A stretch of DNA of 62,440 bases from a virus. The translations under genes and the position numbers were made by a program. Of the stretch, positions 1-40,863 are shown in pieces (the stretch's first letter is position 1; every line of letters begins with the position of its first letter). Location of the stretch: the IMG/VR virus record IMGVR_UViG_3300009026_000010, positions 1 through 62,440 of that record; one strand, 5' to 3'. The notes below the pieces were generated by a model. It did not search any database. It was given only the letters and a program-made list of their open reading frames with translations, and had not been told where the DNA came from.

Positions 1-83
<83 letters not shown>

Positions 84-2705: not shown

Positions 2706-3027
2706 ATGCGGTTACGTTGTTACGATCTTCACCCATATCCCCATCAACTTCGTAACAACTCCTCAACAGCTCTATTTCGGGGCTTTCAGCCTATATATTC
2801 TATATTTGTTACGATATTAACGAAATACGAAGTAGAAACTGTATTACAGAAAAAATTTAGTCCTTCACAACTTTTTTTATTTCTGTAAAACAAGTTCAAA
2901 GATCGTAACATCGTAACGGACAATCCGTGCAACAATGCAGCCGCTCTAGCACGGGGCTTTGAACCTTGTTACGTTTTTAATAAAATTCCGTAACAAGCCT
3001 TAAAATTTCGTAACATCGTAACAAACG
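2706..3027. repeat. iteron-like module A, candidate replication origin
   Basis: The 2635-3134 gap holds repeated GTTACG/CGTAAC elements near 2711, 2719, 2751, 2808, 2903, 2911, 2968, 2989, 3009 and 3017. Two of the pairs have the form CGTAACATCGTAAC. A dyad CTTGTTACG/CGTAACAAG spans 2965-2997, and an AT-rich stretch lies at about 2795-2890. The same order of elements appears, inverted and diverged, at 33695-34025. Iterons plus an AT-rich segment plus dyads suit a replication origin recognised by the phage PrimPol-SF3 helicase. That role is inference. Confidence 0.6.
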
Positions 3028-3134: not shown

Positions 3135-3464
3135 ATGCTTCTCTCAGCCCTTTTTCTCGGCTTCTTCCGCGCACTAGGTATCTTCATCACTCTGATTCGT
3201 TGCCCTCGGATGCTCGTCTTGCAATTATTGGGCCATGCTTGGGTACTTGATATCATAATGTCATCACTCATGTTCGCCATGCACTGGGGAACTGCCATCG
3301 GTGGTTTCAGTGCTGTCATCGCCGCTCTCTTCTGCTCACTCGGCATCACACTCTGTAAAGGATCACTCGGTTACATCCAATCTGGCACCTATTACAAAGG
3401 CTGGTTTGGTGACACACGACCCGCAGACAAACGCAACAAACATCCAATATCGAAGCCACTATGA
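3135..3464 (+). CDS. small membrane protein, 109 aa
   Basis: ATG 3135 follows AGAGG. Two or three hydrophobic segments (about residues 1-22, 27-52 and 55-75) and a polar C-terminus indicate an inner-membrane protein. The stop overlaps the next ATG (ATGA at 3461), starting a chain of five coupled or abutting genes to 4616. Small membrane proteins of this type are common in podovirus early regions, but no function is known to me. Confidence 0.75.
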   Translation: MLLSALFLGFFRALGIFITLIRCPRMLVLQLLGHAWVLDIIMSSLMFAMHWGTAIGGFSAVIAALFCSLGITLCKGSLGYIQSGTYYKGWFGDTRPADKRNKHPISKPL

Positions 3465-13513: not shown

Positions 13514-13668
13514 ACAAATTGTGTCCTTGCTACGGCGAAGGTATAACCAATTTATCAAGTATGAACGAGCGGGTATGTAGTGCTTGTGGCCACAAAGAAC
13601 CGTGGACCAGAGACGAAAAACAACCTCCCTTAGTATCCAGCAACCGTGACACAAGGAAAAGAAAATGA
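13510..13668 (+). CDS. zinc-ribbon microprotein, 52 aa
   Basis: Four-base overlaps on both sides (13510 and 13665) support this short gene. It encodes C-P-C near the N-terminus and C-S-A-C-G-H about 20 residues later, forming a small zinc ribbon, then a basic tail. Function unknown. Confidence 0.6.
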   Translation: MNKLCPCYGEGITNLSSMNERVCSACGHKEPWTRDEKQPPLVSSNRDTRKRK

Positions 13669-14273
13669 GACTGACAAAAAGCATCCGTGAACATATTCTC
13701 AGAAACGCACTAGCTGATTTATTTGATGAAATGGCTGAAAAACACAACGCCGAAGTAAATGTACTGGTGAAGACAGCTTTCGAAGAATACTTTGCCGAAG
13801 AACTAGAAACTATAAGCACTATCCCTAAAGAAAAACGTGAACGAATTATCGGTATTTACACAGGTATTATAGAAGTTCGATTAACAAGCGGAGAAGAAAA
13901 AGACAGTATTCTTCTGCTTAATAGTAGAGGTAAGGAAACCAGTAGATATCTTAAGTATCCTTTACCCTATGGATTAGGTATTTTTCGTGACCGCTGGAAT
14001 CAAACTATTCTATTTTCAGAAAAAGATATTCCAAAAACCTACGATATGTTTAAAAAAATCAACGAAAAAACAAAAGAAATTGCTTCTCAGATATCACTGG
14101 CAAAAAACCAAATAAAAGCAATTCTGGACAGCGTTACTACGGATAAAAAACTTATCGAACTTGCTCCTGAGCTTGAGAAATATCTACCTAAACCAGAACC
14201 CGCACCATCCAACATCTTGCCGATTGATCTTATAAATTCTGTACGGGCTTTGCTGCAAGGGAACAAAAAATGA
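13665..14273 (+). CDS. protein of unknown function, 202 aa
   Basis: Coupled by ATGA overlaps to both neighbours. Predicted helical with a beta-rich middle (about 55-110) and a Pro-rich C-terminal linker before a final helix. Markedly AT-rich. No family recognised. Confidence 0.7.
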   Translation: MRLTKSIREHILRNALADLFDEMAEKHNAEVNVLVKTAFEEYFAEELETISTIPKEKRERIIGIYTGIIEVRLTSGEEKDSILLLNSRGKETSRYLKYPLPYGLGIFRDRWNQTILFSEKDIPKTYDMFKKINEKTKEIASQISLAKNQIKAILDSVTTDKKLIELAPELEKYLPKPEPAPSNILPIDLINSVRALLQGNKK

Positions 14274-17977: not shown

Positions 17978-20344
17978 ATGGAAATCGTATTCCTCAGTGC
18001 TGAGGTTCCGCTTACAAAGACCTACCGTCAGCGTAGGGATCGCATTGAAAAGACGTCATACCCGCTTGTAGACTGCTTCACAAGCCATACCGAACAAGTC
18101 GATACTATCTCAGATTTCTTCACAGCGATAGGCAAACACGCTGCTTTAGGCCATTGTCTATTGAAAGGAACTATTACCGCTGCGCTTGTTGATGAGTCAC
18201 GAGCGGGTGCTACAGATCGGAATGGCCATACTGAGTGGGTGTGTCTGGACGTCGATGGTGTGGATATTGAATCCCCCGACGACTTTATGAACGCCCTCGG
18301 TCTTGGCAATCTCAGCTACATTGTGCAGTACAGCTCCAGCCACGGCATCAGTGACGATTTGCTGCACTGCCATATTTTTGTGATGCTGGAAAAACCATTC
18401 TCTGCCCCTTTGCTCAAGCAATGGCTCATTGATGTTAACTTCAACGTGCCGTTGTTGAACGCTCAGTTTAGCTTGTCTCCAAGCCAGAACTTTCTGTCTT
18501 GGCCACTGGACATTACTACTTGCCAAAACGACAAGCTCTTGTACATAGCACCACCGATTCTGGTAGGAATCGAAGACCCCCTTGGACCTGACCGCTTCCA
18601 ACTTGTACGCAAGAAAAGCGACCGACTACGTTTACCAGCCAACATCAGTTCAGTATCTGCTAACAGGCAGCGAATAGACGAAAAGATCAACGAGCTACGA
18701 CTTGGGCTGCAGTTACCCAAGCGCAAAGCCAGTAAGTACTCAAATGCTGGTCCTATCGAATATCAGACCAACCCTGACCAGTGTACTGTCACCGGCATTA
18801 AACAAGATCGTGGCTATGTATATTTGAATTTGAATGGCGGCGATTCATGGGGTTACTACCACCCCGAAGATCGTTTCGACTTCATCTACAACTTCAAAGG
18901 CGAGCCTACTTACCGCACCAAAGACCTCATCCCTGACTACTGGAATGATTGTGCCAAGGAAGTAGAACGCCAAGAAGATGCGGGAGTAATCACTACTCAC
19001 TTTGCTTTCCGTGACTTCAATTCAGCCAAGTACTACAACGGGTATTATGACCCGCAGAATCGTGAGGTATACATTGCTCAGGCAGCGTCCGAGAAGCAAC
19101 TCAATGATTACATGAGTGCCAATGGCCGAGTTATGCCTCCGGCAGTTCCAATTTGGTGTATGGAGTTTCTGCCGAACGAACCTTTCGTCATAAGGAAATG
19201 CCCAGATAAGCGGGGGTGGTCGGCACAGCTTAATACCTTCACGCCTTCGATCTATTTACAGCAAGAGCCGAAGAAGACAGCCAAGATTCCGCCTATTATC
19301 GAGCGTGTTATACGCCATGCTCTTGGTGGTAGCGACATGGTATTCGATGCTTTCATCAACTGGCTTGCTGTAGCTGTCCAAGACCGGAAAGCAATCGGTA
19401 CTGCTTGGCTGCTGTCAGGTATTCCCGGTACAGGTAAAGGTCTGTTGTGCCACAAAATTCTGAAACCGATGATGGGCCACAACTATGTTGTCCAGCGCCG
19501 GATGGATGAACTTGATGATAAGTTCAATGACTACCTTGAAGAATGTCTATTCTTCTTTGTCGATGAAGTAGAGCTTCCAGAAATGAAGAACTCGAACGTC
19601 ATCGAAGCCAAGATCAAAAACCTTATCACTGAAGAGACAATCAGCTTACGGGGTATGCACAGGGCTTCACGTACTGTACCTAACCACGTCAACTGGATAT
19701 TGTCTTCTAACATGTCTGACCCGTTGACCATCACAAACTCAGATCGCCGCTTTAACGTGGCTGATTACCAGCCTCAGAAACTCAAGATCACAGAAGCTGA
19801 GATTGCTCAGATTGAAAAAGAGCTGCAAAGCTTCTGTGATTATCTTCGTGTATTCAAAGCGAACCGTGACAAAGCGCGTGAAGTAATTTTGACTGCACAA
19901 CGCGAACGCCTTATCCATATCAGCACCACTACTATCGACCTTGCTGCTCAGGCTGTCCTGACTGGCAATCTGCAGTACTTCTTTGACGAATTGCCTACAG
20001 GTAACGTCAAGTACATCAACCCACGACAGCAAATGAAGTTGGGTCTGTATAAAGAGGTACTTGGCGATATCCTTCGTGAACCAAATGTGGGGGCTATAGG
20101 ACGTGACGCTTTACACGTTCTGTTTGACTACCTAATTCCTGAGTCGCCTACCAGTGGTAATAAATTCACAAGCATGCTCAAACACCACGGGCTGCATGTG
20201 TCTCCATGCCGCGTAGCTGGAAGCGCTGGTATTGTACGAGGTGTACCTACCCAATGGGTTATCAACGACCGGATGTATGAGACACTGGAACTTGATAAAT
20301 CAGGCATACCACTGTCTAAAGCGATAGGGAAAAAACAAGTATGA
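17978..20344 (+). CDS. replicative primase-helicase (PrimPol + SF3)
   Basis: A 788-aa bifunctional protein. Residues 85-135 show the PrimPol-like D-x-D (D91, D93), S-S-x-H-G (119-123) and H-C-H-I-F elements. Residues about 475-600 give a D5/P4-type superfamily 3 helicase: Walker A G-I-P-G-T-G-K-G (481-488), Walker B F-F-F-V-D-E (about 527-532), motif C I-L-S-S-N and D-R-R-F-N-V. It would open the origin, prime and unwind. Its stop overlaps the next gene. It is the natural partner of the two iteron modules. Confidence 0.88.
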   Translation: MEIVFLSAEVPLTKTYRQRRDRIEKTSYPLVDCFTSHTEQVDTISDFFTAIGKHAALGHCLLKGTITAALVDESRAGATDRNGHTEWVCLDVDGVDIESPDDFMNALGLGNLSYIVQYSSSHGISDDLLHCHIFVMLEKPFSAPLLKQWLIDVNFNVPLLNAQFSLSPSQNFLSWPLDITTCQNDKLLYIAPPILVGIEDPLGPDRFQLVRKKSDRLRLPANISSVSANRQRIDEKINELRLGLQLPKRKASKYSNAGPIEYQTNPDQCTVTGIKQDRGYVYLNLNGGDSWGYYHPEDRFDFIYNFKGEPTYRTKDLIPDYWNDCAKEVERQEDAGVITTHFAFRDFNSAKYYNGYYDPQNREVYIAQAASEKQLNDYMSANGRVMPPAVPIWCMEFLPNEPFVIRKCPDKRGWSAQLNTFTPSIYLQQEPKKTAKIPPIIERVIRHALGGSDMVFDAFINWLAVAVQDRKAIGTAWLLSGIPGTGKGLLCHKILKPMMGHNYVVQRRMDELDDKFNDYLEECLFFFVDEVELPEMKNSNVIEAKIKNLITEETISLRGMHRASRTVPNHVNWILSSNMSDPLTITNSDRRFNVADYQPQKLKITEAEIAQIEKELQSFCDYLRVFKANRDKAREVILTAQRERLIHISTTTIDLAAQAVLTGNLQYFFDELPTGNVKYINPRQQMKLGLYKEVLGDILREPNVGAIGRDALHVLFDYLIPESPTSGNKFTSMLKHHGLHVSPCRVAGSAGIVRGVPTQWVINDRMYETLELDKSGIPLSKAIGKKQV

Positions 20345-23058: not shown

Positions 23059-23265
23059 ATGCGAACTTGTGTATACGACAACCCTGCCACCATGCAGCGT
23101 GAATGCTGGCAAGACGGACATCTTCTGCATGTATATTCTTTTTTGGTGTTGGAGCCTTACGCAAAAAAATCTATACCATCTGAACATTTCTTTTTCGGTG
23201 CTAACGTAGGCCCATGGGACGAAAGCCAATTGATAGGAGACGCTAATGCGCGTAGCCCCGAGTAA
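23059..23265 (+). CDS. small protein, 68 aa, overlapping the polymerase gene
   Basis: ATG 23059 follows CAGG. It overlaps the polymerase start (23246) by 20 bases in another frame. It contains two Cys and a central hydrophobic strand. No family recognised. Confidence 0.5.
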   Translation: MRTCVYDNPATMQRECWQDGHLLHVYSFLVLEPYAKKSIPSEHFFFGANVGPWDESQLIGDANARSPE

Positions 23266-25153
23266 AAAACTGACACCGCTGTTCCTTGATTTCGAGACTT
23301 ACTGGTCTGTGGATTTCACCCTCCGGAAAATACCGACAGGTGACTACATACGTGACAAACGGTTCAAAATCCATTGTGTATCAGCCAAACTCGGGCGAGG
23401 TAAGACTCGTTCGTTCACCAATATGGATGAGTTCCAAGCTTACCTAAACGAACAAGACTGGGACAACATAGTGCTGGTCGGCCATAACCTGTACTTCGAC
23501 GGGCTGATCCTCACCGAACTGTTCGGTGTATACCCTGCTGCTTATCACTGCACCATGTCAATGTCCCGTGGCTTGTGGCGTAACACCTGCGCCCATAACC
23601 TCAAAGATATGTGTGCTCGTGTAGGGATCGTAGCCAAGACCAAAGCAGGTGCGCTGCTCAACACTAAAGGTAAAGAGGAGCTTACCAAGCGTGAGCTTCG
23701 TCAACTGTGCGGGTACTGCAACGACGATGTGAACGAGACAGCTCAGGCTTACTACATCATGCTGCCGTACGTTCCAGAAATCGAGCTGGAAATCATCAGC
23801 CATACAGTTCGTTGCTTCACTGAGCCACTGCTTGTAATCAACGCTGCGCTGCTTGAAGAGGCAATTGAAGAAGTTGAAGAACGACGCGAAGAGCTGCTGG
23901 CCAAGGTAGAGGAGTTCGTGGTTGAGCAATGCCCCGAGGCTGACACATTGGCCAAGGCACTGCGTAGCCGTATTCACTTTCCTCGTATGCTCGAAGCACT
24001 TGGCATTAACCCGCCAATGAAGATCAGCCCACGTACTGGCAAACTCACCTACGCACTGGCAGCAAAAGACCCTGAGTACATGGAGCTGCTTGAAGACGAA
24101 GACCCTATGGTCAGGCTGCTGTGCGAAGCTCGTTCAGAGTTCACCAGTAATCAGACTATGACCCGTGCTCAACGGCTACTGTCAGCGACTGAAGGTGGCG
24201 CTACGCTACCGATAATGTACTTGTACTGTGGTGCGCATACTATGCGCTGGTCAGCTTCCAACAAGATGAATCTGCAGAACCTGCAGCGTGGTTCTAAGCT
24301 GAGGAAGGCTATCGAGGCTCCACCGGGGTACGTGATGATGGTCGGTGACTCCGGCCAGATTGAAGCGCGTGTGGTAGCTTGGATTGCCGATGAAGAACAG
24401 CTGCTACATGGCTTCAGGCAAGCTGATTTGAAGTTGGATCGTGATGTGTACTGTAAATTCGCTGATGACGTATACGGGCGTACGATCACTAAAGACGACG
24501 ACGATGAACGCTTTGTAGGTAAGACAGCGATTCTTGGTCTTGGCTTTGGAATGGGCTGGAAAAAGTTTTTCAGCACAATGGTTATAGCGGGTCGAGCCAT
24601 GTCACCCGACAAAGCTCAGCAAGTAGTTAACCTGTACCGAAATAAGTACACCAAGATACCGGCGCTTTGGGAATATCTTAACCGGATTCTCGGCATCATG
24701 GCGGCTGGCGGTTCAGGCGAGATTGTCTTGGCTGGTGGTCAACTGGTGCTTGAGTTCGAGCACGACAAAGTTTGGATGCCCAACGGTCTTGCCCTTCACT
24801 ATCCCGGTCTCAGAGCTACATACGACGAGGAAGGGCGTCAGAGCGGTTTTGAGTTTCTGTATGTCAAAGGTAACAAAGCCTTCTACAAGAAAATCTATGG
24901 CGGGCTATTCACAGAAAACATTGTTCAGTGCTTGGCACGGATTATTGTGGGTGAGCAGATTGTCAAAATAGCACGCCGCTATCGAGTTGTGATGACCACT
25001 CACGACGAAGCTGTAATGTTGGTTATGAAGAAAATGCATGAAATCGACAAGGCTTATAACTTTATGTTCCAAACAATGTCGATAGCTCCTGACTGGTGCG
25101 CTACCTTACCGGTCACAGCTGAAGTAAAATACGCGGATAACTACTCAAAATAG
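23246..25153 (+). CDS. DNA polymerase, family A, with 3'-5' exonuclease
   Basis: 635 aa. The N-terminal DnaQ-like exonuclease shows F-L-D-F-E-T-Y (D15, E17), G-H-N-x-x-F-D and a C-N-D-D-V block. The polymerase core shows motif A D-S-G-Q-I-E-A-R (about 367), motif B K-T-A-I-L-G-L-G-F-G-M-G (about 430) and motif C H-D-E (about 587). Motif A has Ser-Gly where DYSQIE is usual. It synthesises phage DNA together with the primase-helicase. SD GGAG in front of ATG 23246. Confidence 0.93.
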   Translation: MRVAPSKKLTPLFLDFETYWSVDFTLRKIPTGDYIRDKRFKIHCVSAKLGRGKTRSFTNMDEFQAYLNEQDWDNIVLVGHNLYFDGLILTELFGVYPAAYHCTMSMSRGLWRNTCAHNLKDMCARVGIVAKTKAGALLNTKGKEELTKRELRQLCGYCNDDVNETAQAYYIMLPYVPEIELEIISHTVRCFTEPLLVINAALLEEAIEEVEERREELLAKVEEFVVEQCPEADTLAKALRSRIHFPRMLEALGINPPMKISPRTGKLTYALAAKDPEYMELLEDEDPMVRLLCEARSEFTSNQTMTRAQRLLSATEGGATLPIMYLYCGAHTMRWSASNKMNLQNLQRGSKLRKAIEAPPGYVMMVGDSGQIEARVVAWIADEEQLLHGFRQADLKLDRDVYCKFADDVYGRTITKDDDDERFVGKTAILGLGFGMGWKKFFSTMVIAGRAMSPDKAQQVVNLYRNKYTKIPALWEYLNRILGIMAAGGSGEIVLAGGQLVLEFEHDKVWMPNGLALHYPGLRATYDEEGRQSGFEFLYVKGNKAFYKKIYGGLFTENIVQCLARIIVGEQIVKIARRYRVVMTTHDEAVMLVMKKMHEIDKAYNFMFQTMSIAPDWCATLPVTAEVKYADNYSK

Positions 25154-25612: not shown

Positions 25613-26383
25613 ATGCCTGCAAAAAAAGCACCATCAACTGCTGTAGCCACAAAGCGTGAATCCCTCCCAGTCGATGTACAAGCCCTTCTGGAAAAACAGA
25701 AGAATGCTGTCATGGACAAAATCGGTCGGCCCACGTCAACTGTGATTCAGATTAAACAGAACAAGAACTTCGTTCTGCCAAACGGCGAAATCACTGAAGG
25801 ACCGATTGATCTGGTCATTCTTGACTTCGTTTCCATGAACACGTTCTACGAAGGTGCATACGATAAGGATAACATCGCTTCTCCTGTTTGTTTTGCTATC
25901 GGCGATAATCCTGACGCCCTTATCCCTTCTGTGAACGCTCCTGAAGTCCAAGCTGATACCTGTGCAGTCTGCCCGATGAATAAATACGAGTCGGCTGAGC
26001 GTGGTAAAGGCAAGGCGTGTAAGAACATGCGTGTACTAGCCGTGATGGCTGCCGACGCATCTGACGAAGATAAAATCTGGTTGCTGCGAGTAAGTCCTAC
26101 TGGCCTCAAAGCGTACGATGCATACGTACGCAATTTGGCTCAACGGAACAATGTGGCACCTATTCAAGTCGTCACCAAAGTTGGTTTTGATCCTAACTCA
26201 GATTATCCTTCTCTGCGCTTCGCTCCCGAGCGTGTGCTTATAGGCGATTCTCTGGCTTTCTTCCTGAGTCGTGTGGAAGAAGCTGGTGAGTTGGTGCGTA
26301 CTGAGCCTGATTACAGTCACGCCGAAGAGGAAAAGAAACCAGCTAAGAAAGCACCTGCGCGTAAGCCAGCTGCTCGTCGTTAA
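25613..26383 (+). CDS. probable single-stranded DNA-binding protein, 256 aa
   Basis: The central domain resembles phage ssDNA-binding proteins: a beta-rich region, a C-x-x-C-P-M-N and later C-K-N element (about 120-142, a likely zinc site), then a strand-rich part and an acidic/Lys-Pro-Ala-rich tail (about 235-256). Location right after the polymerase fits. The basic rather than purely acidic tail is unusual for an SSB, so the call stays moderate. A strong terminator follows. Confidence 0.6.
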   Translation: MPAKKAPSTAVATKRESLPVDVQALLEKQKNAVMDKIGRPTSTVIQIKQNKNFVLPNGEITEGPIDLVILDFVSMNTFYEGAYDKDNIASPVCFAIGDNPDALIPSVNAPEVQADTCAVCPMNKYESAERGKGKACKNMRVLAVMAADASDEDKIWLLRVSPTGLKAYDAYVRNLAQRNNVAPIQVVTKVGFDPNSDYPSLRFAPERVLIGDSLAFFLSRVEEAGELVRTEPDYSHAEEEKKPAKKAPARKPAARR

Positions 26384-26391
26384 ACCATTGT

Positions 26392-26418
26392 GCTGCTACT
26401 TCGGTAGCAGCGTTTTTT
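26392..26418 (+). terminator. Rho-independent terminator (UUCG loop)
   Basis: GCTGCTAC (26392-26399), TTCG loop, GTAGCAGC (26404-26411), then a U-run. Perfect 8-bp stem with a C(UUCG)G cap. Confidence 0.9.
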
Positions 26419-26437
26419 AGAAAAAAGGAATCATTCC

Positions 26438-26893
26438 ATGGCTCGTAAAAGTACTGCTCTCAAGCACGCTGTCGCTGAACCCGCAACTGAGGATGCTCCA
26501 GCAGAGAAAGTCTCCAAAGCAAAAGCTACCAAGGAGAAAGCTGCACGTACAAATCCAACAACTGTCGCTGATGCCAAGCAGCTAAAAGCTGCTATCAAAG
26601 CCAAAGAGAAAGAATTGGCTCAAGTCACGAAAGATTTGGATAAAGAAAGCAAGGTTATCGGCGCTACATTTGACGCTTCCATGAAGCCGTTGATTGATAG
26701 CCAGAAAGCTGCGCTGAAAGAAAAAGAGAAAGCTGCTGCTGCTTATGAAAAGACCCGAGTGAAGAACAACGCTGCTGCTACTAAGATAGCTACTGCCAAA
26801 GACAAAGCTGAAGCAGCCTTCACCAAGAAGAGCGAGCGTATCCTGAACAAACTGGCCAAGGAACTGGGAGCTCTGCGCGCTAAAGATGTATAA
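26438..26893 (+). CDS. Lys/Ala-rich helical protein, 151 aa
   Basis: The product is composed almost entirely of Lys, Ala, Glu and Thr, with one long helix (about 45-145) and a disordered N-terminus. It lies between two strong terminators, so it is probably a separately expressed, abundant DNA- or membrane-associated protein. No family recognised. Confidence 0.7.
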   Translation: MARKSTALKHAVAEPATEDAPAEKVSKAKATKEKAARTNPTTVADAKQLKAAIKAKEKELAQVTKDLDKESKVIGATFDASMKPLIDSQKAALKEKEKAAAAYEKTRVKNNAAATKIATAKDKAEAAFTKKSERILNKLAKELGALRAKDV

Positions 26894-26907
26894 GTTGCCA
26901 GTATCAT

Positions 26908-30147: not shown

Positions 30148-32025
30148 TCACGTTGTCATTACCGGGCGTAGCACGATCTGGCTTACCTCGATAGCTCCAG
30201 ATACTGTTGACCCCGGATACCCACCGGCACCGATGCGCACGCGCACATCAATGGCATCGGCAGGTATGGTAATCACCGGCGTGCGCATCACTCCTACCCA
30301 CGACCCATCGGGCAAGCGCATGGCCTGCACGTCGGTCATGGTAGTGAGCTCACCAGCCATGGCATACAGAATGCCACCAGCACCGCGATCAATCCGAATA
30401 TCAAACTGCAGGCCAGCCAGATTCACGCTGGCATCAACGCGCACAACACAAAGCGCTTCTACATCCGTACCAATCGGCCAGTCGGGGGCGATCTGCTGTA
30501 GCGCACACTGCCCAACGCCAACGCCAGCCGTGCCTGAAATCACAAAGCGCTGCGCCGGCACGCCTCGATGACTGGTTACCTTGCTGGCGACAACCGACAG
30601 CCCGCCAACGGCATCCACCTGACTGCTGGCAGCAACATCACCCGTGCCACCGCTGACACTGCCACCAGTACCAAGCAGCATGCCGTTTGGCAGCAGGTTG
30701 CCGTATGGATTATCAGTAGCGTGCCACACGTTGCTTGGATCAAAAAACATATCATCACGGGGCGGCTCAAGCGCATTGATTATCTCTGCAATGCTTCGGC
30801 CCAAACGCCACGCACCCCAAGTGCCGGGGTGAATGCCGTCATAGGTCATATACTCAAGGCTTAGCCCATCACCATCACTGTAATCAGTGAAAATTGGTAT
30901 CGGGTTCAGCACCTCAAACCGCTCGCGCCGATACTGCGCCTGCTGAATATAGTTGTTGATGCGAGCGCATTTGGTCTTGTGAGCGGCGGTGTACGTGGTC
31001 TGCGGACCACGCGGATAAATCATGGACGCCAACACAAACTTACCGGCTGCATAACAGGCGTCCCAAATTGCCTCAAGGTTTGCACACGTTTCATCAGAGG
31101 TGATCGACTGCGTCACATCGTTACCACCGATTGATACCAGCACATAGTCAGTACCCGCAGCCAACACATCGTTGATGCGGGCCAGCAGGTCTGCGCTGTT
31201 GTCGCCGCCCACGCCAAAATTCCAGCCCTTGTCGAAATACACGCGCTGCTCACACAATGCCAGCGCCCATGTCATATAGCCAATATCTCGCAAACGCTCG
31301 CGGGACGTGGTTCCAGAGTTCTGACCTGTAACGCTGTCACCTGCTATCGCTATGGTCTTGCGGCCCCCTGTAGCAACAGAAGGCGCTGGAGCGCCACCAA
31401 CACCAGTAGCTACAAGCTGACCGTACTTGGTAACAATCATCTTCGGTTGGGCAGCACTGGCCAGCCGGCTGTAAAGAGTCAGCGTGTGCGAAGAGCTGGC
31501 CGGACCAATCCGCACTACCACTGCGGTAGTAGTTCCTACCCCCGCAACGAATCCTGCTTTAAGACTCACGCCGTTGCCAGACGTGGCACCGGACGTCAGG
31601 CGATCCACCAAGGTGGCCACCAGCACACCACCAGCCCACACCGTCACTACCAAGTTACCGGCCGAGCTGATTGCGATAAACGGGATCAGTATATCCAGAT
31701 GGACGTGTTGACCCTCGAAAGTATCCAGCGTCTGGGAAATAAGCGCGTAACCATCTGACGCACCGGGAGCAGAGGAACCCACTGCGATCTGGAATGAAGA
31801 ACCTGCAACCGAAGTAGAAGAAGACAGCCCAGCCGTATACGACTCAATCTCTACCCCTGCTTCGCTAAGGTCTACTTCACTCAGCGTCACGATGTCGCCG
31901 CTGCCTTTCTTGAAGAACAGCAGCCCATCAGCCGTGTTGACGGCCAGCTCGCCCAGTTCTAGCGAGCCAGCAGTCGGTACTGCTGCGGCCGTAGACGACC
32001 GCTTATGGAGTATCTTGTCAGCCAT
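30148..32025 (-). CDS. tail-spike/fibre protein with SGNH esterase domain
   Basis: 625 aa. N-terminus (about 1-48) is a fibre-attachment segment with L-x-x-G-E-L-A-V-N-T-A-D-G-L-L-F-F. Residues about 220-415 form an SGNH hydrolase: G-D-S (229-231), G-V-G-G-D (272-275), G-G-N-D (300-303), D-G-I-H-P (396-400), giving the Ser-Asp-His triad with Gly and Asn of the oxyanion hole. The last 180 residues look like a beta-rich carbohydrate-binding module. It probably removes acetyl or other esters from the host polysaccharide. Confidence 0.82.
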   Translation of the reverse strand: MADKILHKRSSTAAAVPTAGSLELGELAVNTADGLLFFKKGSGDIVTLSEVDLSEAGVEIESYTAGLSSSTSVAGSSFQIAVGSSAPGASDGYALISQTLDTFEGQHVHLDILIPFIAISSAGNLVVTVWAGGVLVATLVDRLTSGATSGNGVSLKAGFVAGVGTTTAVVVRIGPASSSHTLTLYSRLASAAQPKMIVTKYGQLVATGVGGAPAPSVATGGRKTIAIAGDSVTGQNSGTTSRERLRDIGYMTWALALCEQRVYFDKGWNFGVGGDNSADLLARINDVLAAGTDYVLVSIGGNDVTQSITSDETCANLEAIWDACYAAGKFVLASMIYPRGPQTTYTAAHKTKCARINNYIQQAQYRRERFEVLNPIPIFTDYSDGDGLSLEYMTYDGIHPGTWGAWRLGRSIAEIINALEPPRDDMFFDPSNVWHATDNPYGNLLPNGMLLGTGGSVSGGTGDVAASSQVDAVGGLSVVASKVTSHRGVPAQRFVISGTAGVGVGQCALQQIAPDWPIGTDVEALCVVRVDASVNLAGLQFDIRIDRGAGGILYAMAGELTTMTDVQAMRLPDGSWVGVMRTPVITIPADAIDVRVRIGAGGYPGSTVSGAIEVSQIVLRPVMTT

Positions 32026-32576: not shown

Positions 32577-32870
32577 TTAGAAGTAACCACCGTCCGGTGA
32601 AACCGGTTCGAACGCTCCGTCATGGAACACTTTGAGTTGGAGCGTTAATGGGTTGTACCACGTCTCGCTCTCCACCGCGCCTACAGGCACTGTGTCCTGA
32701 ATGTATGATATCCCGCCTGCTCCTACACCATTACGCCCCGGTCTGCCCATGATACCGGCAGCTACAACGCCTGTCTGTGGCTGAGCTGTCTGTGTGACGA
32801 ATCGCTGCTGCTGCCGTGCTGCAGTTACATGGGCAGAGCTGCCTGTACTCACACGCAGAATCTTAGCCAC
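32577..32870 (-). CDS. small tail-associated protein, 97 aa
   Basis: Gly/Val-rich with W-Y-N-P-x-T-x-x-L-K-V-F-H-D-G-x-F, an element common in tail fibre and tail-tip subunits. It overlaps the upstream gene by eight bases. Probably structural; exact role unknown. Confidence 0.6.
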   Translation of the reverse strand: MAKILRVSTGSSAHVTAARQQQRFVTQTAQPQTGVVAAGIMGRPGRNGVGAGGISYIQDTVPVGAVESETWYNPLTLQLKVFHDGAFEPVSPDGGYF

Positions 32871-33694: not shown

Positions 33695-33767
33695 TTACCG
33701 GCTTGTTACGATGTTACGAAATTTCGGCGTCTGTTACGAATTTCGTAACATCGTAACAAGCCGGTAA
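33695..33767. repeat. 29-bp perfect inverted repeat in module B
   Basis: The arms 33695-33723 and 33739-33767 are perfect inverted repeats of 29 bp separated by 15 bp. Each arm contains two iterons (GTTACGATGTTACG), and the spacer holds another GTTACG. A dyad this long could extrude as a cruciform or present six sites to a dimeric initiator. It corresponds to the imperfect dyad and iteron pair at 2965-3025 in module A. Confidence 0.85.
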
Positions 33768-34025
33768 ATACGCGGGCTGCAGACCATTTGTTACGATTGT
33801 TACGATGTTACGATCTTAAAACTGTTCTACAACAGAAAATTTTTTATGGGCTGAAAAAACTTTTTTTTCTGTAAACTAAATTCTATTTCGTATTTCGTAA
33901 AGATCGTAACAAATAGGGGTATAGAGGGGTTAAGAAGCCCATTCCAGAGCCTCTGGAGGCTGTTACGAAACCTGTTACGAAATTGGGTAGGATAGGGGTC
34001 AAGATCGTAACATCGTAACAAACTC
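33695..34025. repeat. iteron-like module B, inverted copy of module A
   Basis: The 33538-34143 gap contains an AT-rich stretch at about 33815-33905 and clusters of GTTACGA/TCGTAAC: three in a row at 33790, 33799 and 33807, pairs at 33707/33713 and 33744/33752, singles near 33906, 33961 and 33972, and a pair near 34005. Read on the minus strand, its order of elements matches 2706-3027, including the R-C-Y-D-like shadow frame. So this is a diverged inverted duplicate, most likely an origin module. The role is inferred. Confidence 0.6.
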
Positions 34026-34031
34026 CCAAAC

Positions 34032-34067
34032 CTTTGGTTATAAGACGTTGAGACCTTATAACCAAAG
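34032..34067. repeat. 13-bp inverted repeat flanking module B
   Basis: CTTTGGTTATAAG (34032-34044) and CTTATAACCAAAG (34055-34067) are a perfect dyad with a 10-nt loop, next to module B and downstream of the gene ending at 34144. No U-run on either side. It might be a weak terminator or an additional regulatory dyad. Confidence 0.55.
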
Positions 34068-34436: not shown

Positions 34437-37400
34437 TCACCACCCTTTCCAGACTACGTTACCCGGTAGGCCAGCCACCACGGCGTCAGTGACTTCCCCA
34501 TCCAGTACTTTTTCCCCAGCTTTCCACATATATCCGGCTGTAGGCCCAAGAGCAAACATAGGGTTCTCAGCTCCATCCATGCCAAGCTGGCGTACACCAA
34601 GCAGGCCAGCACGCTGCGTGCCATGCCATACAGTCTCACCAAACGACATGTCTTTCTTCCAGTCAGGCTCTTCACCCAGTCCTTGCACCATCCCACGCAG
34701 ATAGTCAGCCGCGATCATGAAGGGTACATAGGCTGCGATGGCCATGAGCGGAGCGTAGTTCCCGTTCTTGGACTCGTGCATCACACGCTCCAGAATCGTC
34801 TTCTGGAAGCTGTAGGTGAACTGCTTCAAGTGCCATATCAACATCCAACGCGGGTCTGAACCCCAAGCTGGCCGGTGTGCAGCATGCGGCCGAAGCACTG
34901 CACCATCCACCCACCGGTTGATAGCCTCACGGGCGAAGCGTGATTTCTCCAACGCTGTGCTGATGTCACCCCCAGTGTTGATCATGTGTTCAGTGATGTC
35001 GCGCTGTGACCACAACAGCTTACCTTCTTCAGTGAACACCACGTTGTCACCGGTTATGCCCAGCTCAGACAGCCAGCGCTTACTATTCTTCGGGTCGATG
35101 TTCTGTGCGTGACGTTCGATAAAGTCCACAGCAGCCACAGTAGCTGCGCTGCGTATAGCTGTGTTCCAGCCTTCCATGAGGTTGTACCGGAACAGCATAT
35201 TGTTGGTCTTCCGCGCCCAGTCAGACATGAACGCCGAGCCATACATGTCGCCCAGCATATCCATAGTCATCTGAGACTCTACAGTGCCGACCAGCTCCGC
35301 AAATTGCTGCATATCGGACTTGGTGCCGTTCTTACGTATTGACTGTGGGATGTTCTTCACACCTGCTTTGAAGCCGGTCCAAGCCTGCTCGACTGTACCA
35401 CCGCGCACCACGATACCCATAGGGTCGATCAACGAGCTGAATATAGCCAGAGGTAGTACAGCAAGGTTCTGCCATGTCACCAGACCAGACATGACATTCC
35501 GGGCTACCGGATTGATGTCGTGACCAAGCGTACCTTCCATAGCCATAATCGCTGTGTTGATATCGCCACGAACTTCTTCAGGCGTTACGCCAGTCGCCAT
35601 GGCCTCATCCAGCCATTCTTTCAGATTCTCACCTTCTGGTCCGAAGTGACGTGTGTACTCACCACGCTTCGCCGCCTGTGTGATGTATCGAGTCAACACC
35701 CGTACGATGTCATGATCCATGAACTCAGCAGCCAAAGCTCTGTCATCCAATACGATCTGCCGTCCCATCGACGCTTCCATGAATGGTGAGTACCCGGCAA
35801 GGTCTTCTTGGATATCCAGTTTTTCTTCCCCGTACAGCAACATATCGGCTGTAGCCTCAGCGCCAGCACGGTCAAAGCTCTGCAGCCTACCGTTGTCGTC
35901 ACGGAACTTGGCATTATTAACCAGCATGTCGATGAAGCCGTCGCGGTTGTCCTCGATAGTGGTCTTGTCCCAAGCCTGTGGGAAGTAGTCCTGTACTCTT
36001 CCTACATTCAGGCCAGACGATTTCGAGTAAGCATGTAGCCTGCGTAGAAGCTGGTTGATCTGGTTGTACCGACCACGCAGCGCAGCGTCAGTAGGCGCTT
36101 TCTGCGAATGCAGCGCAGATGCCAACGTGCTGATATCTGCAGGATCAACACCCTGCATGATCTGCCCAAACTGGGAGCCATACATTGTCACTACAGAACG
36201 CACGGTCTGCAGATAGCCAGAGCTGCTGTCGTTATAGAACGTGTCAGCTATCTTGTCCAAAGCCGGGTTGCCGTAGCTCTTCAAGCGTCCATGCGAAGTA
36301 CGTACTACCTTCTCAGCAATCTTGTAGATTTTCTGTACGACAGGTGCAGCGCGCAGAGCACGTTCAGGACCAGACAACGAAGCCATGACCACTTCATTGA
36401 CAGCGCTTGGCTGTTTCAGTCGGCCGTCACGAAACGCAGCCATATACAGACCAGCTTTGTCTACGTTGCTGGGTATACCAAACACCTGACGTAGCATCTG
36501 AGTGAACTTGGCAAACCAGTTCTCTACACTGCTGGCAAGGTTAAGCTCACCAGCTGCCCAGAACTGATACATGTAGGCGATACGTTCTTCAGAATCTTTG
36601 TTCACCTGTTCCAGAGCGGCTGGGTGTCCTTGCAGCTTCGCGCGCAGCTGACTGAGTACCAGTGGCGAGTTCGCTGCTTTGGTCAGAGCCTTGATGAACG
36701 GAGCTTGTTCTCTCTGCCTGCCCATGGTCTTGAGCAAGGCGTGCATGGACTCGTGGAACGCTACGCTCATAGGATCAGCTGTGTAGACTGACAACTCGAT
36801 TACCCGATCAACGAACTCGTTACCGTCAGTATCAGTTTCCGTAGTTTGTGAGTAGAAACCGCTCATACCGGGTAGCTCAGATATCTCAACACGCACATCG
36901 TCAGGTAATACGTTACGGATGTACTCAATCGCGTCGACGAAAGCATCGTCATCAGCAGTAATCTGGTCGCCGGGATCAACTCTCGACGCTTTGCCCTGTT
37001 CTTTCTGGTAGGCGTCGAAAGTGCTGTTCAGGTTGTCGATGTTATCGAGCAGTGTGTTGAGACTGCGCCCTTCGATGGCAGCAGAGAAGAAGTCATTATC
37101 AGCCTTCATAACAATGTCAGCCAGCGTCTGTAGGCTCTGCATGTCAGTGGTAGTGAACATCCCAGCATCCATACGCTTGGCAATCTGCGCATTCACTACA
37201 TCGCGCACGCGCTCGATACCTTGGCGCTCTTCACCTTTGAGCATAGCCTTCTTCATTTCAGCACTCATAGTGCTGCTGTTCTGTACCTGCTGGCGACGGC
37301 CACGGTCGTAGCTGCGTAGGATGTCACCTGCGATCTTTTGCTGCGCCGGTACTGACAGGTCAAGCACTGGAATACCAAGGCGTGTAGCCAGCCTGCTGCT

Positions 37401-40400
37401 GGGTGTGTCACCGATAGTCAGAACCAGATGTACAGGTGCATCGGCGTTGGCACCAAGCAGCCGGGAGGTCACAGCATCGGAGTAGATATTACCTTCCACG
37501 TCTGTGTTCATTGGTACAGCTTTGCGCATGCGGAAACCGCGACGGTTGTAGGCTTCGACCAGTTTGTTGGCGTCCTCAATCTTCACATTCTTGGTTACAC
37601 CAGTCTGCGCCTTGGCAGTAGCGAACTGCAGCGGCTCACCACGGGCAGCGATCTTACCCAACACGGCATACTTCCCTTTCAGGTCTACACCAGTCGGTAG
37701 CTCGCCAACTGCCCACTGCATATTTCGCACAAGCTGCTCAGCACGACTCATTGTCTCTATGAACGAGCGGCGAGGACGTGTAGGGTCACGGCCTTCCAGA
37801 CGATCAGCTGCTGCTTGCTGCGCTGCGCTTCTGCGCTTCGATATCTTGGTTGGTTCATCCCCACGCTCAGTGGCCACACCTACTTCTTTGAGCAGCTGAG
37901 CTGGCATGGTGTCAGGGTCAAGCTCTTGAACACCGAAAGCTTGGGCTACTTGAGCAGTACGATCCTCAGAGTCACCACCGATAGCAGCTGGACCTTCACG
38001 GTCACGTTGGGCCTGTACACGGGCTTGCTGGCTATCAGCCAGAGCATCATCACCGGCACGTACACGGTTCGGTGCGATAGCAGCCAGTGCGCGGGAGTCG
38101 ATACCTGCGTTAAGCGCCCATTGCACCATGTCGAACATCAAGCTACCACGCACGGAAGCACGACCAAGCTCAGAAGGTACGTTGGTGCCGTGTTTGTCGA
38201 TCAGTGCTTGAGTCCACGTAGGGATAGCAGTACCGCGTGCGGCAGCGTTCCGGCTGGCCAGCGCAGCGACGTACTTCTCTACGATCTGCGTAACGTCCTG
38301 CTCGGATAGATACAGCTCGCCAGTTGTGTAGTCCACACGCGGTTCGATACCAAGAGTGTTAAGCACACCAAAGTCCTCAGCCTTGAACGGGAACGCTTCA
38401 CCGGTATTCTGACGTTGTGCTTCAGACAGTTTGCTTCGTGCTCCATCAATAGTGATTGTGGTCTCTTGCCCGCTACGGTCATATCGCGCCAGCACCAGCG
38501 AACCGGGCAGACCATCAGCCAGTGTGTAGCCGTCAACCAACATGTCAGTCACGCCTTCAGCCATTGCTTCCATCAAGGCATTCGGTGTGCGCTTACCAAA
38601 CACTTTCGATCCGACATATAAACGAAGATCAAGCGCGGCTACCGCGCCTTTATCATCGACGAAGCCAAGATATGAACCGTTGGAAGGATCGTTGCGGTCA
38701 TTGTTCAGCTGTTCGATAGTACGTTTCTTCAGTTCGGTGACGAACTTACGTACGCCAGACTCGTTGTTCTGCGCTGTGCCTTTGATGAAGAACATACTGC
38801 GCAGAGCATCAGTCGATACGCCCATTTCGGCCGCGACATCTGCAGGATCAACACCAAGACGTTGAAGCTCGAAGAACGCTGGCACAGCAGCCAGATCACT
38901 CTCGGGTGCCAGCCGCTCGACATTGCGAGTAATGTTCTTAGTCAGCTCGATGTTGGCTGAATCGACAGGATATGGGATGTTCAAGCCACCGGTCTTGATG
39001 CGGCGGTTGCCTGTTGTATCGCCGAACAGCTGAGTGCTCACGTCCTGTACAGATTGAGTTTCACCGAACTCGGCTTCCGAGCCAGCTTCAAAGGCGGTGT
39101 CAGAATCCACAGCAGCCTGAGTCAGATCAGCTTCCTGAGTACCGTCAGGCACTGTGTTGGCGCTCAGCGCATCAAGCACTTCTTGTGGATTGGAGAAAGC
39201 AGTAGATAGGATTTCACTTACATCGCCCACACCTTCGTTGGCAGCATCAAGGATCATTCCTCGTAGCTGGCGTAGCTGGGCAGGAGTGATGTTGTCACGA
39301 TACTCAGGCTTCAGTGCCTGCAACATGAAGTTGTTGAAGTTGCCGTTCTCACGCTGATCTTGGTCGACAAGCTCCTGAACCTGTGTATTGTCAGGCGCTA
39401 CAGCTCGCAGCACAGAGTACCCGCGCTCACCGAAGATGTTCAGAGCGTCGTTGATCATGGGAGCAGTCAGCTGCCCGCCCTCGCCAAAGAACTGACGAGT
39501 TGAAGCGATCCAGTTCCGTACCACCGGACTCTGTGCCTCGTTCTCTACTGCTGCGCTCGACACTACAGCGTCGATTTCTTCCAGCGGCACCGTCGGGTTC
39601 ATGCGTGAAGCTGTACCTTCAGGCTGCAGACGGTTGATACCAGCCTGTGCTGCATCTTCGCGGTTCTTCTTCTCATACAGATTCTGCACTGCTTCTTGCG
39701 CATCAGGATCAAGGTCTGTCTCTTGATCAAGTACCGCACGTTCTTCGTTGGTCAAGTCAGTGCGTGCTTGCAGCTGACGTCCAAGCTCAGCCATACGCTC
39801 AGAAATCGTCTGCTCCTGCACAAGCTCGTCAGCAGCAAGGTCTTCGATACTGGCGTTCGGGTCAGCAGCCGGAGAACGTGGAGTCAGTAGATTACCAATA
39901 CTCTGACGCAGCCCTTCAGTATTCGGGCGCATAGTAGGAGCAGTGTTGAGTGCGTCAGCAGCCACACCTACTGAACTCATAGCTGTGGTGGCTACACCAG
40001 CTGGGATACCGAAGCCTGCACCACCGGCAGCGCCAGCGGCTGCAGATTCAAGGTACTCAGCTCGTGCTTCAGGGTCTCGTGGGTCAACAGCAATGTTCGG
40101 GTTGAATAGCGACTGAGCACCACGGCTTACAGCAGTCTGTCCAACTTCAGTAACTGCTTCGCCAGCGATAGCGCCGGTAGCTACACCAGTGCCTTTGACC
40201 ACAGCATCTGCCATGTTCTTGGCAGGGCTACCGCGTCCTGCGCCCATGAGCTTACGTAGTACACCGGTCTCAGGCAGTACTTCCAGCACTGAACCAATAG
40301 CACCAGCACCGGTTGCAGCAGCAGCACGTTCTCCGATAGTAGCTGTGCTGTCTTGGTCCTGCCTCATGGAGTAGCTGGTCTCACCAGCCAGAACAGGGAA

Positions 40401-40817
40401 GGTAGCAGCTGAGGAAGCCGCGAGCTGTGCCGGTATGGAGGTACCGCCAGTAGCCATAGCAGTCCCCGCAGCGAGAGCAGACACAGGAGCGGATTCACCG
40501 AACTTATTGACGCCATATCTTACGGCCGAGTCTAAGCCTTGAATATCGCCGAGGGTCTGGGGACCGCGCTGCATACGCCCAGCTTTCACCATCTGCTTGT
40601 CGGCATAGCCGTACAAGTCTTGGGCAAGCTCAGGTTTGTCGAGGTTTTCAGCTAATAGGCCAGCGTAGTCAGCGCCGAGACCAAGTGACTGTTCAGTACC
40701 GCGTCGTGCGGCATTCTGGAACAGGTCTTGATCAGAGGATTGTACCGTTGGGTCAGTCTCGCCAAGTGCGTGACCGCGCACCGCACGATTAAGTGGATTG
40801 GGGTCAAACAAGGCCAT
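34437..40817 (-). CDS. giant internal virion protein (2126 aa) with HEXXH motif
   Basis: ATG 40817 with GGAG six bases before it replaces the longer TTG-start frame. The N-terminus has Ala/Gly-rich glycine-zipper helices (about 80-300), as in injected virion proteins. H-E-S-M-H (1355-1359) with a downstream E-E-R-I-A-Y suggests a zincin protease. The last 600 residues resemble LPD38-type polyvalent phage proteins. It may be ejected with DNA and cleave host or capsid-internal proteins. No RNA-polymerase motifs were seen. Functional parts are inferred. Confidence 0.75.
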   Translation of the reverse strand: MALFDPNPLNRAVRGHALGETDPTVQSSDQDLFQNAARRGTEQSLGLGADYAGLLAENLDKPELAQDLYGYADKQMVKAGRMQRGPQTLGDIQGLDSAVRYGVNKFGESAPVSALAAGTAMATGGTSIPAQLAASSAATFPVLAGETSYSMRQDQDSTATIGERAAAATGAGAIGSVLEVLPETGVLRKLMGAGRGSPAKNMADAVVKGTGVATGAIAGEAVTEVGQTAVSRGAQSLFNPNIAVDPRDPEARAEYLESAAAGAAGGAGFGIPAGVATTAMSSVGVAADALNTAPTMRPNTEGLRQSIGNLLTPRSPAADPNASIEDLAADELVQEQTISERMAELGRQLQARTDLTNEERAVLDQETDLDPDAQEAVQNLYEKKNREDAAQAGINRLQPEGTASRMNPTVPLEEIDAVVSSAAVENEAQSPVVRNWIASTRQFFGEGGQLTAPMINDALNIFGERGYSVLRAVAPDNTQVQELVDQDQRENGNFNNFMLQALKPEYRDNITPAQLRQLRGMILDAANEGVGDVSEILSTAFSNPQEVLDALSANTVPDGTQEADLTQAAVDSDTAFEAGSEAEFGETQSVQDVSTQLFGDTTGNRRIKTGGLNIPYPVDSANIELTKNITRNVERLAPESDLAAVPAFFELQRLGVDPADVAAEMGVSTDALRSMFFIKGTAQNNESGVRKFVTELKKRTIEQLNNDRNDPSNGSYLGFVDDKGAVAALDLRLYVGSKVFGKRTPNALMEAMAEGVTDMLVDGYTLADGLPGSLVLARYDRSGQETTITIDGARSKLSEAQRQNTGEAFPFKAEDFGVLNTLGIEPRVDYTTGELYLSEQDVTQIVEKYVAALASRNAAARGTAIPTWTQALIDKHGTNVPSELGRASVRGSLMFDMVQWALNAGIDSRALAAIAPNRVRAGDDALADSQQARVQAQRDREGPAAIGGDSEDRTAQVAQAFGVQELDPDTMPAQLLKEVGVATERGDEPTKISKRRSAAQQAAADRLEGRDPTRPRRSFIETMSRAEQLVRNMQWAVGELPTGVDLKGKYAVLGKIAARGEPLQFATAKAQTGVTKNVKIEDANKLVEAYNRRGFRMRKAVPMNTDVEGNIYSDAVTSRLLGANADAPVHLVLTIGDTPSSRLATRLGIPVLDLSVPAQQKIAGDILRSYDRGRRQQVQNSSTMSAEMKKAMLKGEERQGIERVRDVVNAQIAKRMDAGMFTTTDMQSLQTLADIVMKADNDFFSAAIEGRSLNTLLDNIDNLNSTFDAYQKEQGKASRVDPGDQITADDDAFVDAIEYIRNVLPDDVRVEISELPGMSGFYSQTTETDTDGNEFVDRVIELSVYTADPMSVAFHESMHALLKTMGRQREQAPFIKALTKAANSPLVLSQLRAKLQGHPAALEQVNKDSEERIAYMYQFWAAGELNLASSVENWFAKFTQMLRQVFGIPSNVDKAGLYMAAFRDGRLKQPSAVNEVVMASLSGPERALRAAPVVQKIYKIAEKVVRTSHGRLKSYGNPALDKIADTFYNDSSSGYLQTVRSVVTMYGSQFGQIMQGVDPADISTLASALHSQKAPTDAALRGRYNQINQLLRRLHAYSKSSGLNVGRVQDYFPQAWDKTTIEDNRDGFIDMLVNNAKFRDDNGRLQSFDRAGAEATADMLLYGEEKLDIQEDLAGYSPFMEASMGRQIVLDDRALAAEFMDHDIVRVLTRYITQAAKRGEYTRHFGPEGENLKEWLDEAMATGVTPEEVRGDINTAIMAMEGTLGHDINPVARNVMSGLVTWQNLAVLPLAIFSSLIDPMGIVVRGGTVEQAWTGFKAGVKNIPQSIRKNGTKSDMQQFAELVGTVESQMTMDMLGDMYGSAFMSDWARKTNNMLFRYNLMEGWNTAIRSAATVAAVDFIERHAQNIDPKNSKRWLSELGITGDNVVFTEEGKLLWSQRDITEHMINTGGDISTALEKSRFAREAINRWVDGAVLRPHAAHRPAWGSDPRWMLIWHLKQFTYSFQKTILERVMHESKNGNYAPLMAIAAYVPFMIAADYLRGMVQGLGEEPDWKKDMSFGETVWHGTQRAGLLGVRQLGMDGAENPMFALGPTAGYMWKAGEKVLDGEVTDAVVAGLPGNVVWKGW

Positions 40818-40823
40818 GGACAG

Positions 40824-40863
40824 CTCCAAGGTATAGGCGTGTAGACGTAACTATACCTTGGAG
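40824..40863 (-). promoter_or_regulatory. hairpin hiding the ribosome site of the giant protein
   Basis: CTCCAAGGTATAG (40824-40836) and CTATACCTTGGAG (40851-40863) are a perfect 13-bp dyad, 14-nt loop. On the minus-strand mRNA its 3' arm ends in UUGGAG, the Shine-Dalgarno for ATG 40817. So the ribosome site is paired in the stem. Possibly it sets a low synthesis rate of the giant protein or ends upstream transcription partially. Confidence 0.6.

What the first reader, a model, noticed from the sequence alone, without database searches (positions are those of the whole stretch)
2706..3027. Two iteron-like modules in inverted orientation 31 kb apart, candidate dual origins
The non-coding module here and the one at 33695-34025 (opposite strand) carry the same order of elements: GTTACGA repeats, a CGTAACATCGTAAC pair, an AT-rich stretch, a dyad and a final iteron pair. 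They are clearly related but diverged, so the arrangement was kept by selection. The phage encodes a PrimPol-SF3 primase-helicase that would suit such iterons. Two opposed origins in one genome would be unusual. The repeats and similarity are read directly; the origin role is inference.
Basis: partly seen in the sequence, partly recalled or inferred. Interest (0 to 1): 0.85.

Follow-up and report, generated by a model that had tools for sequence, protein, structure and literature searches.

The report
Twin replication-origin modules in lytic phages
This phage carries two matching, easily melted DNA switches about half a genome apart that look like paired start points for copying its DNA, and the same pair recurs in roughly 20 related viruses, although nobody has yet tested whether both really start replication.

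Summary
Modules M1 (2706-3027) and M2 (33695-34025, opposite strand) align at score 157, against 20±2.3 for shuffles. All 19 genomic copies of the iteron TCGTAACA lie in them (6+13), and they hold the two least stable 100-bp windows of the 62-kb genome. The phage is a relative of Kochitakasuvirus (KPP25), which has the same two modules at the same two places. I examined 34 genomes of 50 kb or more that carry a related PrimPol-SF3 gene. At least 19, and probably 20-22, have such a pair: typically one copy just upstream of the PrimPol-SF3 gene and one just 3' of the giant virion-protein gene. Iteron sequence changes between phages, but both modules of one phage usually share it. In diverged sister phages, modules within a genome are more alike than orthologous modules, so they evolve in concert. 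This points to one trans-acting factor, most likely the 788-aa PrimPol-SF3-winged-helix protein. The inverted orientation is not conserved. Best reading: two iteron/DUE replication origins, M1 primary and M2 a second, ori-like site, comparable to oriL/oriR of SPP1. Origin firing and protein binding remain inference.

The parts
2706..3027 (+). Module M1 (putative origin 1), non-coding, at the start of the early/replication arm
   Evidence: Aligns to M2; syntenic with KPP25 26218-26895; least stable 100-bp window of the genome starts at 2791
2711..2725 (-). M1 left iteron pair (GTTACGTTGTTACGA; one degenerate, one exact)
2750..2757 (+). M1 iteron TCGTAACA
2791..2890 (.). M1 AT-rich duplex-unwinding-element candidate, least stable 100 bp of the genome
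2807..2814 (-). M1 iteron TGTTACGA followed by ACGAAATACGAA
2844..2888 (.). M1 dyad TTACAGAAA ... TTTCTGTAA inside the AT-rich core; a similar dyad in KPP25
2903..2918 (+). M1 right iteron pair TCGTAACATCGTAACG
2966..3024 (.). M1 terminal back-to-back iterons (arms 2966-2987 / 3003-3024, 77%, 15-nt loop)
33695..34025 (-). Module M2 (putative second origin), non-coding, 3' of the giant virion-protein gene
   Evidence: syntenic with KPP25 58069-58634; second least stable 100-bp window
34005..34020 (+). M2 outer iteron pair (+ strand TCGTAACATCGTAACA; left pair when M2 is read on its own strand)
33961..33980 (-). M2 iterons at 33961-33968 and 33973-33980
33815..33915 (.). M2 AT-rich duplex-unwinding-element candidate, with TTACAGAAA at 33866-33874 (-) and TTTCTGT at 33832-33838 (-)
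33904..33911 (+). M2 iteron TCGTAACA (upstream flank of the core)
33789..33813 (-). M2 three iterons next to the core (33789, 33798, 33806)
33695..33767 (.). M2 perfect 29-bp hairpin of two back-to-back iteron pairs (arms 33695-33723 / 33739-33767)
   Evidence: fold z-score -12.3
17978..20344 (+). 788-aa PrimPol-SF3-winged-helix protein, the proposed initiator
   Evidence: Pfam DUF5906; profile match to NrS-1 helicase 6k9c E=4e-57; AlphaFold2 pLDDT 88.8 with C-terminal winged-helix order of elements at 682-757; Foldseek
23246..25153 (+). Family A DNA polymerase with 3'-5' exonuclease
34437..40829 (-). 2130-aa giant virion protein, the conserved neighbour of M2 (M2 lies 3' of it) in the family

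Best explanation
M1 and M2 are two replication-origin modules recognised by the phage's own PrimPol-SF3 helicase-winged-helix protein. The protein would bind the TCGTAACA iterons that flank an AT-rich core, melt the core (the least stable DNA in the genome), load its helicase ring and synthesise a primer. M1 is the primary origin: in most relatives its counterpart sits directly upstream of the initiator gene. M2, in the late region 3' of the giant virion-protein gene, is a second ori-like site. It either fires as a second origin or, bound by initiator, stops forks and helps the switch to concatemer synthesis, as proposed for SPP1 oriR. Shown here: sequence, repeats, instability, conserved pairing and position, concerted evolution, protein domains. 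Inferred: binding, melting, firing and the division of labour.
For: The modules are related far above chance and hold every TCGTAACA in the genome. They contain the two least stable 100-bp windows in the window genome and in three Kochitakasuvirus genomes. In 16 of 30 other long relatives the two least stable windows are the corresponding two loci (roughly 0.2% per genome expected, my estimate). In 64 of 82 loci the least stable 100 bp lies within 600 bp upstream of the PrimPol-SF3 gene, against 3.1 expected. A second copy of M1, anywhere in the genome, is found 3' of the giant virion gene in 18 genomes; in G002 the same pair shows. Iterons differ between phages (TCGTAACA; TTCGGAAC in G002; AGTGTAA in G034; TTGGAA type in G017 and G012), yet within a phage both modules usually share the type. 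Within-genome similarity exceeds orthologue similarity in window/KPP25 (157 and 147 against 51 and 53) and G007/G034 (255 and 310 against 56 and 77). The protein has PrimPol-like invariant residues D91, D93, H132 and D178, Walker A 484-488, and a C-terminal winged-helix order of elements.
Against: No replication, binding or read-depth data. Six long genomes with M1 show no M2 by these tests (G004, G016, G024, G026, G027, G031), so M2 is dispensable in some lineages; six more are unclear. In the window and Kochitakasuvirus M1 is 12-15 kb from the initiator gene. The predicted recognition helix (727-736, NKFTS.LKHH) is conserved although iterons vary, so the iteron reader may lie elsewhere in the protein or be another protein. 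GC-skew extremes lie 1-15 kb away from modules. For AEP-SF3-winged-helix proteins of pRN1 and phage BIP-1 a stem-loop, not iterons, was proposed as the assembly site (PMC4234260).
Confidence: 0.66

Rival explanations
1. M1 is the only origin; M2 is an initiator-bound accessory site that does not fire: a fork barrier or switch to concatemer synthesis, a looping/enhancer site like crr of phage P4, or a titration/handcuffing site that limits initiation.
For: M1 is near-universal and initiator-adjacent while M2 is missing in several lineages. SPP1 oriR is proposed to act as a G38P-bound fork block (PMC3485210). M2 has more, and more perfect, iterons than M1.
Against: M2 keeps its own highly unstable AT-rich core, ranked first or second in the genome, which a pure binding or titration site would not need.
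Confidence: 0.22
2. The modules are transcription-control regions (operator arrays and promoters) for early and late units.
For: They are intergenic, AT-rich, and M1 usually precedes the replication gene; a shared DNA-binding regulator would also make iterons co-evolve.
Against: Orientation relative to neighbouring genes flips between close relatives (window/KPP25, G013/G019, G022/G034). Sigma-70-like sites are no more frequent than in shuffles. Iteron pairs flanking a long unstable core is origin-like anatomy.
Confidence: 0.08
3. The modules are recombination, inversion or packaging sites (inverted repeats that flip half the genome, or pac/cos-like signals).
For: Two related sequences in inverted orientation about half a genome apart; the copies are 85-96% alike in G020 and G034.
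Against: About half of the relatives carry them in the other orientation; in the window the copies are too diverged for efficient homologous recombination; they are not next to the terminase gene; a recombination or packaging role does not call for an AT-rich core of this kind.
Confidence: 0.03

Closest known systems
oriL and oriR of Bacillus phage SPP1 (initiator G38P)
   Same: Two origin-like sites of similar make-up (direct repeats plus AT-rich unwinding element), both bound by one initiator; oriR lies in the late region (PMC6316719, PMC3485210).
   Different: SPP1 uses a separate initiator, loader and DnaB-type helicase with host primase; its sites are ~12-13 kb apart on 44 kb; no sequence relation was tested. 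Here the candidate initiator is a PrimPol-SF3 fusion, sites are 24-34 kb apart (0.37-0.50 of the genome), and the pair recurs across a diverse family with changing iterons.
Satellite phage P4 ori and crr with alpha protein
   Same: A primase-SF3 helicase with a C-terminal winged-helix domain that binds origin repeats (PMC4234260); two cis regions with shared iterons (ori, crr: own knowledge).
   Different: P4 alpha has a Toprim primase, not an AEP PrimPol; crr is a few kb from ori and not itself an origin (own knowledge).
Plasmid pRN1 / phage BIP-1 type AEP-SF3-winged-helix replication proteins
   Same: Same domain order: AEP primase, SF3 helicase, winged helix.
   Different: Those origins were described as large stem-loops without iterons (PMC4234260); here iteron arrays flank an AT-rich core, plus an iteron hairpin.
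Phage NrS-1 primase-polymerase
   Same: Only solved structural relative by sequence profile (6k9c, 6k9e, 6lrb; E 4e-57) and best by fold.
   Different: NrS-1 is proposed to start at an 8-nt primer site TTTGGTTA (PMC8718748, PMC7102993); no iteron modules are described.
Kochitakasuvirus KPP25, phiR18, CRPAP1904
   Same: Same two modules at syntenic places with the same iteron TCGTAACA/TCGTGACA.
   Different: Primase only 58-59% identical; the two modules best align in the other relative orientation; extra iteron units in M1; no origin annotated in the records.

Membership tests
Iteron-type replication origin (iterons plus AT-rich unwinding element) | Several short direct repeats clustered in a non-coding region | tested here: met
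   9 and 13 octamers; all exact genomic copies in the modules
Iteron-type replication origin (iterons plus AT-rich unwinding element) | Adjacent AT-rich region of low duplex stability | tested here: met
   Rank 1 and 2 of all 100-bp windows in the genome
Iteron-type replication origin (iterons plus AT-rich unwinding element) | Linked to the initiator gene | tested here: inconclusive
   Met in most relatives (64 of 82 loci); in the window and Kochitakasuvirus M1 is 12-15 kb away
Iteron-type replication origin (iterons plus AT-rich unwinding element) | Initiator binds the iterons and replication starts there | not testable with these tools
   Needs binding assays and marker-frequency data
Dual-origin phage replicon of the SPP1 type | Two similar ori modules far apart in one genome | tested here: met
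   (as sequence modules; origin activity untested)
Dual-origin phage replicon of the SPP1 type | DnaB-type helicase, loader and G38P-type initiator | tested here: not met
   The replication gene found is PrimPol-SF3 with family A polymerase; no DnaB-type hit among the proteins scanned (not every ORF was scanned). So it may work like SPP1 but is not filed as SPP1-type
P4 alpha-type replicon | Toprim primase fused to SF3 helicase and winged helix | tested here: not met
   N-terminal AEP-like motifs instead (D91, D93, H132, D178 invariant in 50 sequences); SF3 and winged helix present
AEP PrimPol-SF3 (NrS-1 / pRN1-like) replication proteins | AEP catalytic motifs plus SF3 Walker A/B, sensor and arginine finger | tested here: met
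   Invariant D91, D93, H132, D178; GTGKG 484-488; E530 (D529 nearly invariant); N578; R590/R591; 6k9c match
pRN1/BIP-1 stem-loop origin | Large stem-loop and no iterons | tested here: not met
   Hairpins exist (z -12.3 in M2, -3.2 in M1) but are themselves made of iterons, and iteron arrays flank the core

The most novel reading that the evidence does not exclude
A widespread family of PrimPol-SF3 phages replicates from two initiator-bound origins placed far apart, roughly opposite each other on the circular map. The two origins co-evolve in concert: when the iteron changes, both modules change, whatever their orientation. This gives shortened replication time or a built-in fork-collision site that triggers concatemer synthesis.
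Probability: 0.5. Interest if true: 0.75.

Novelty: new variant of a known kind. Interest (0 to 1): 0.62.

Why it matters
It gives precise, testable origin candidates for Kochitakasuvirus (a Pseudomonas aeruginosa phage genus with no annotated origin in the records read) and for a large uncultivated family. It also suggests that AEP PrimPol-SF3-winged-helix proteins can use iteron/AT-rich origins rather than only stem-loops. The natural set of orientation flips, losses of M2 and iteron switches is a ready-made experiment on why a phage keeps two origins, a question best known from SPP1.

Tried and rejected
Direct nucleotide search of M1 in the phage collection found nothing: modules diverge too fast. 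A single-protein scan of IMG/VR missed all relatives; alignments were needed. Exact antipodal spacing looked striking in the window and KPP25 (0.497 of the genome each) but other members range from 0.37 to 0.50, so it is not a rule; gene order constrains it. GC skew was uninformative. Rfam found nothing. The NrS-1 octamer TTTGGTTA occurs twice in a hairpin at 34032-34067, but KPP25 lacks it entirely and relatives lack it at their modules: treated as coincidence. Gene-strand context from mechanical ORFs was unreliable and is not used. SPP1 could not be fetched as a positive control. GTDB genomes were not scanned.

Full report
OBSERVATION. The two non-coding modules exist as described. M1 (2706-3027, + strand) aligned with M2 (33695-34025, - strand) scores 157, while 500 shuffled pairs average 20 (maximum 32). 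TCGTAACA occurs 19 times in 62,440 bases, all in the modules (6 and 13); TCGTAACATCGTAAC occurs six times, all there, and its reversed control never. Iteron columns are better conserved between modules (67/72) than the rest (179/242; p=0.0003). Both are non-coding: M1 lies between ORFs 2248-2634 and 3135-3464, M2 between the 2130-aa giant virion-protein gene (34437-40829, -) and the 224-aa gene 32863-33537 (-).

ANATOMY. Each module has iterons, an AT-rich core carrying a TTACAGAAA/TTTCTGTAA dyad, an iteron pair pointing away from the core, a GC-richer spacer and a terminal hairpin of back-to-back iterons. In M2 the hairpin is a perfect 29-bp stem with a 15-nt loop (fold z -12.3); in M1 it is degenerate (z -3.2); KPP25 has it in both modules (z -7.1 and -4.8). 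By nearest-neighbour energies the cores are the first and second least stable 100-bp windows of the genome (starts 2791 and 33816).

RELATIVES. The nearest named phages are Kochitakasuvirus KPP25, phiR18 and CRPAP1904 (788-aa protein 58-59% identical). They have both modules at the syntenic places, with TCGTAACA/TCGTGACA iterons clustered nowhere else. Two alignment-based scans of IMG/VR found 119 relatives (80 kept) of the PrimPol-SF3 protein; I read the long ones whole. All 25 genomes searched for the giant virion protein also encode a homologue of it, so this is one broad phage group.

FAMILY-WIDE PATTERN. (a) In 64 of 82 loci the least stable 100 bp lies within 600 bp upstream of the PrimPol-SF3 gene, 3.1 expected. 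(b) A second copy of that module, searched over the whole genome, is found 3' of the giant virion gene in 18 genomes of 34 at scores of 43-310, against a usual background near 30 (gap-against-gap comparison); G002 shows the same pair. G012 shows both by eye and by stability, G001 by stability only, and G014 has a pair at other places. (c) The two least stable windows of the genome are exactly these two loci in 16 of the 30 genomes outside the window/Kochitakasuvirus clade, and the two modules in all four of that clade. (d) M1 without a detectable M2: G004, G016, G024, G026, G027, G031; unclear: phiA008, G018, G028, G029, G032, G033. The labels are mine, from these tests; weak cases could change.

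ONE FACTOR, TWO SITES. Iterons change between phages: TCGTAACA (window, KPP25), TTCGGAAC (G002), AGTGTAA (G007, G034), TTGGAA/TGGAAG type (G012, G017, G030), AGTATAAG (G013). The two modules of a genome usually share the type. Many contain a G[GT]AA-like core, by eye. In diverged sister phages the two modules of one genome are more alike than orthologous modules: window/KPP25 paralogues 157 and 147 against orthologues 51 and 53; G007/G034 255 and 310 against 56 and 77. In very close pairs (G011/G025, G021/G023) orthologues are closer, as expected. That is concerted evolution, by gene conversion, joint selection by one binding protein, or both.

ORIENTATION. Read in the sense of the neighbouring gene, the best-aligning orientation is the same in the window, G007, G013, G020, G021, G023 and G034, and opposite in KPP25, phiR18, CRPAP1904, G002, G011, G015, G017, G019, G022, G025 and G030. 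A primase tree needs at least four changes, for example between window and KPP25, G013 and G019, G022 and G034 (quick tree, and the modules are partly palindromic, so the weakest cases are uncertain). Separation ranges from 24.2 to 33.8 kb (0.37-0.50 of the genome; some contigs are incomplete).

THE PROTEIN. The 788-aa product matches Pfam DUF5906 and, by profile, only the NrS-1 primase-helicase among solved structures (E 4e-57). AlphaFold2 on 50 homologues gives mean pLDDT 88.8 (pTM 0.60); Foldseek ranks NrS-1 first, then poxvirus E5/D5, PriRep1 and the SaPI5 primase-helicase. Invariant D91, D93, H132 and D178 fit an AEP primase; 484-488, E530, N578 and R590/R591 fit SF3 (assignment from known family motifs). 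The C-terminal order helix 682-700, strand 706-708, helices 709-719 and 727-736, strands 742-745 and 752-757 is that of a winged helix (my reading). P4 alpha and pRN1 proteins carry a winged-helix domain in this place (PMC4234260). The predicted recognition helix is conserved although iterons vary, which is unexplained.

MECHANISM. Most likely the protein binds the iterons, melts the core, encircles DNA as an SF3 ring and primes, with extension by the family A polymerase. The initiator-adjacent position in relatives makes M1 the primary origin. M2 either fires too or, loaded with initiator, blocks forks and promotes the switch to concatemers, as proposed for SPP1 oriR (PMC6316719, PMC3485210). 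Everything after 'M1 and M2 share iterons and unstable cores' is inference. Transcription control is less likely because orientation flips and sigma-70-like sites are not enriched.

KNOWN OR NEW. Dual origins with one initiator are known from SPP1, so the kind is known. New here, as far as the papers I could search show, are the recurrence of the pair across a PrimPol-SF3 phage family, its fixed neighbours, iteron co-evolution, orientation flips, and iteron origins for an AEP-SF3-winged-helix protein, for which a stem-loop had been proposed as the rule (PMC4234260).

Noticed in passing
window 34032-34067: Perfect 13-bp inverted repeat CTTTGGTTATAAG/CTTATAACCAAAG beside M2; each arm holds TTTGGTTA, the primer-recognition octamer of NrS-1 PrimPol (PMC8718748). 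Only 3 copies in the genome, none in KPP25; probably coincidence or a terminator.
   Followed up: partly
window 52-82 and 62342-62372: Runs of about 30 G near both contig ends, followed by low-complexity A/G sequence; possible sequencing or assembly artefact, so the contig may not be a clean circular cut.
   Followed up: no
window 13665-14273: Nmad5 (nucleotide modification associated domain 5) protein, E=7.5e-19: a hint of modified DNA.
   Followed up: no
G035 primase locus (L173:10001-13186): PrimPol-SF3 ORF is about 1066 aa, with the match to the window protein stopping near residue 488: a possible intein or insertion in the helicase.
   Followed up: no
G004 terminase, C1:62230-65862: Large terminase matches in four pieces within one 1349-aa open frame: possible inteins.
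   Followed up: no
G001 about 38.2 kb (L075): Array of about six to seven GGGTTA units, telomere-like, in a phage contig.
   Followed up: no
window 30148-32025 (-): Protein with an N-terminal tail-fibre-like stretch and a lipase/esterase-like body (phrog_6102, 1e-55).
   Followed up: no
G002 C1 68900-70035 and its start: Iteron cluster of TTCGGAAC spread over more than 600 bp across the contig junction, with further iteron pairs; larger than other M1 modules.
   Followed up: partly
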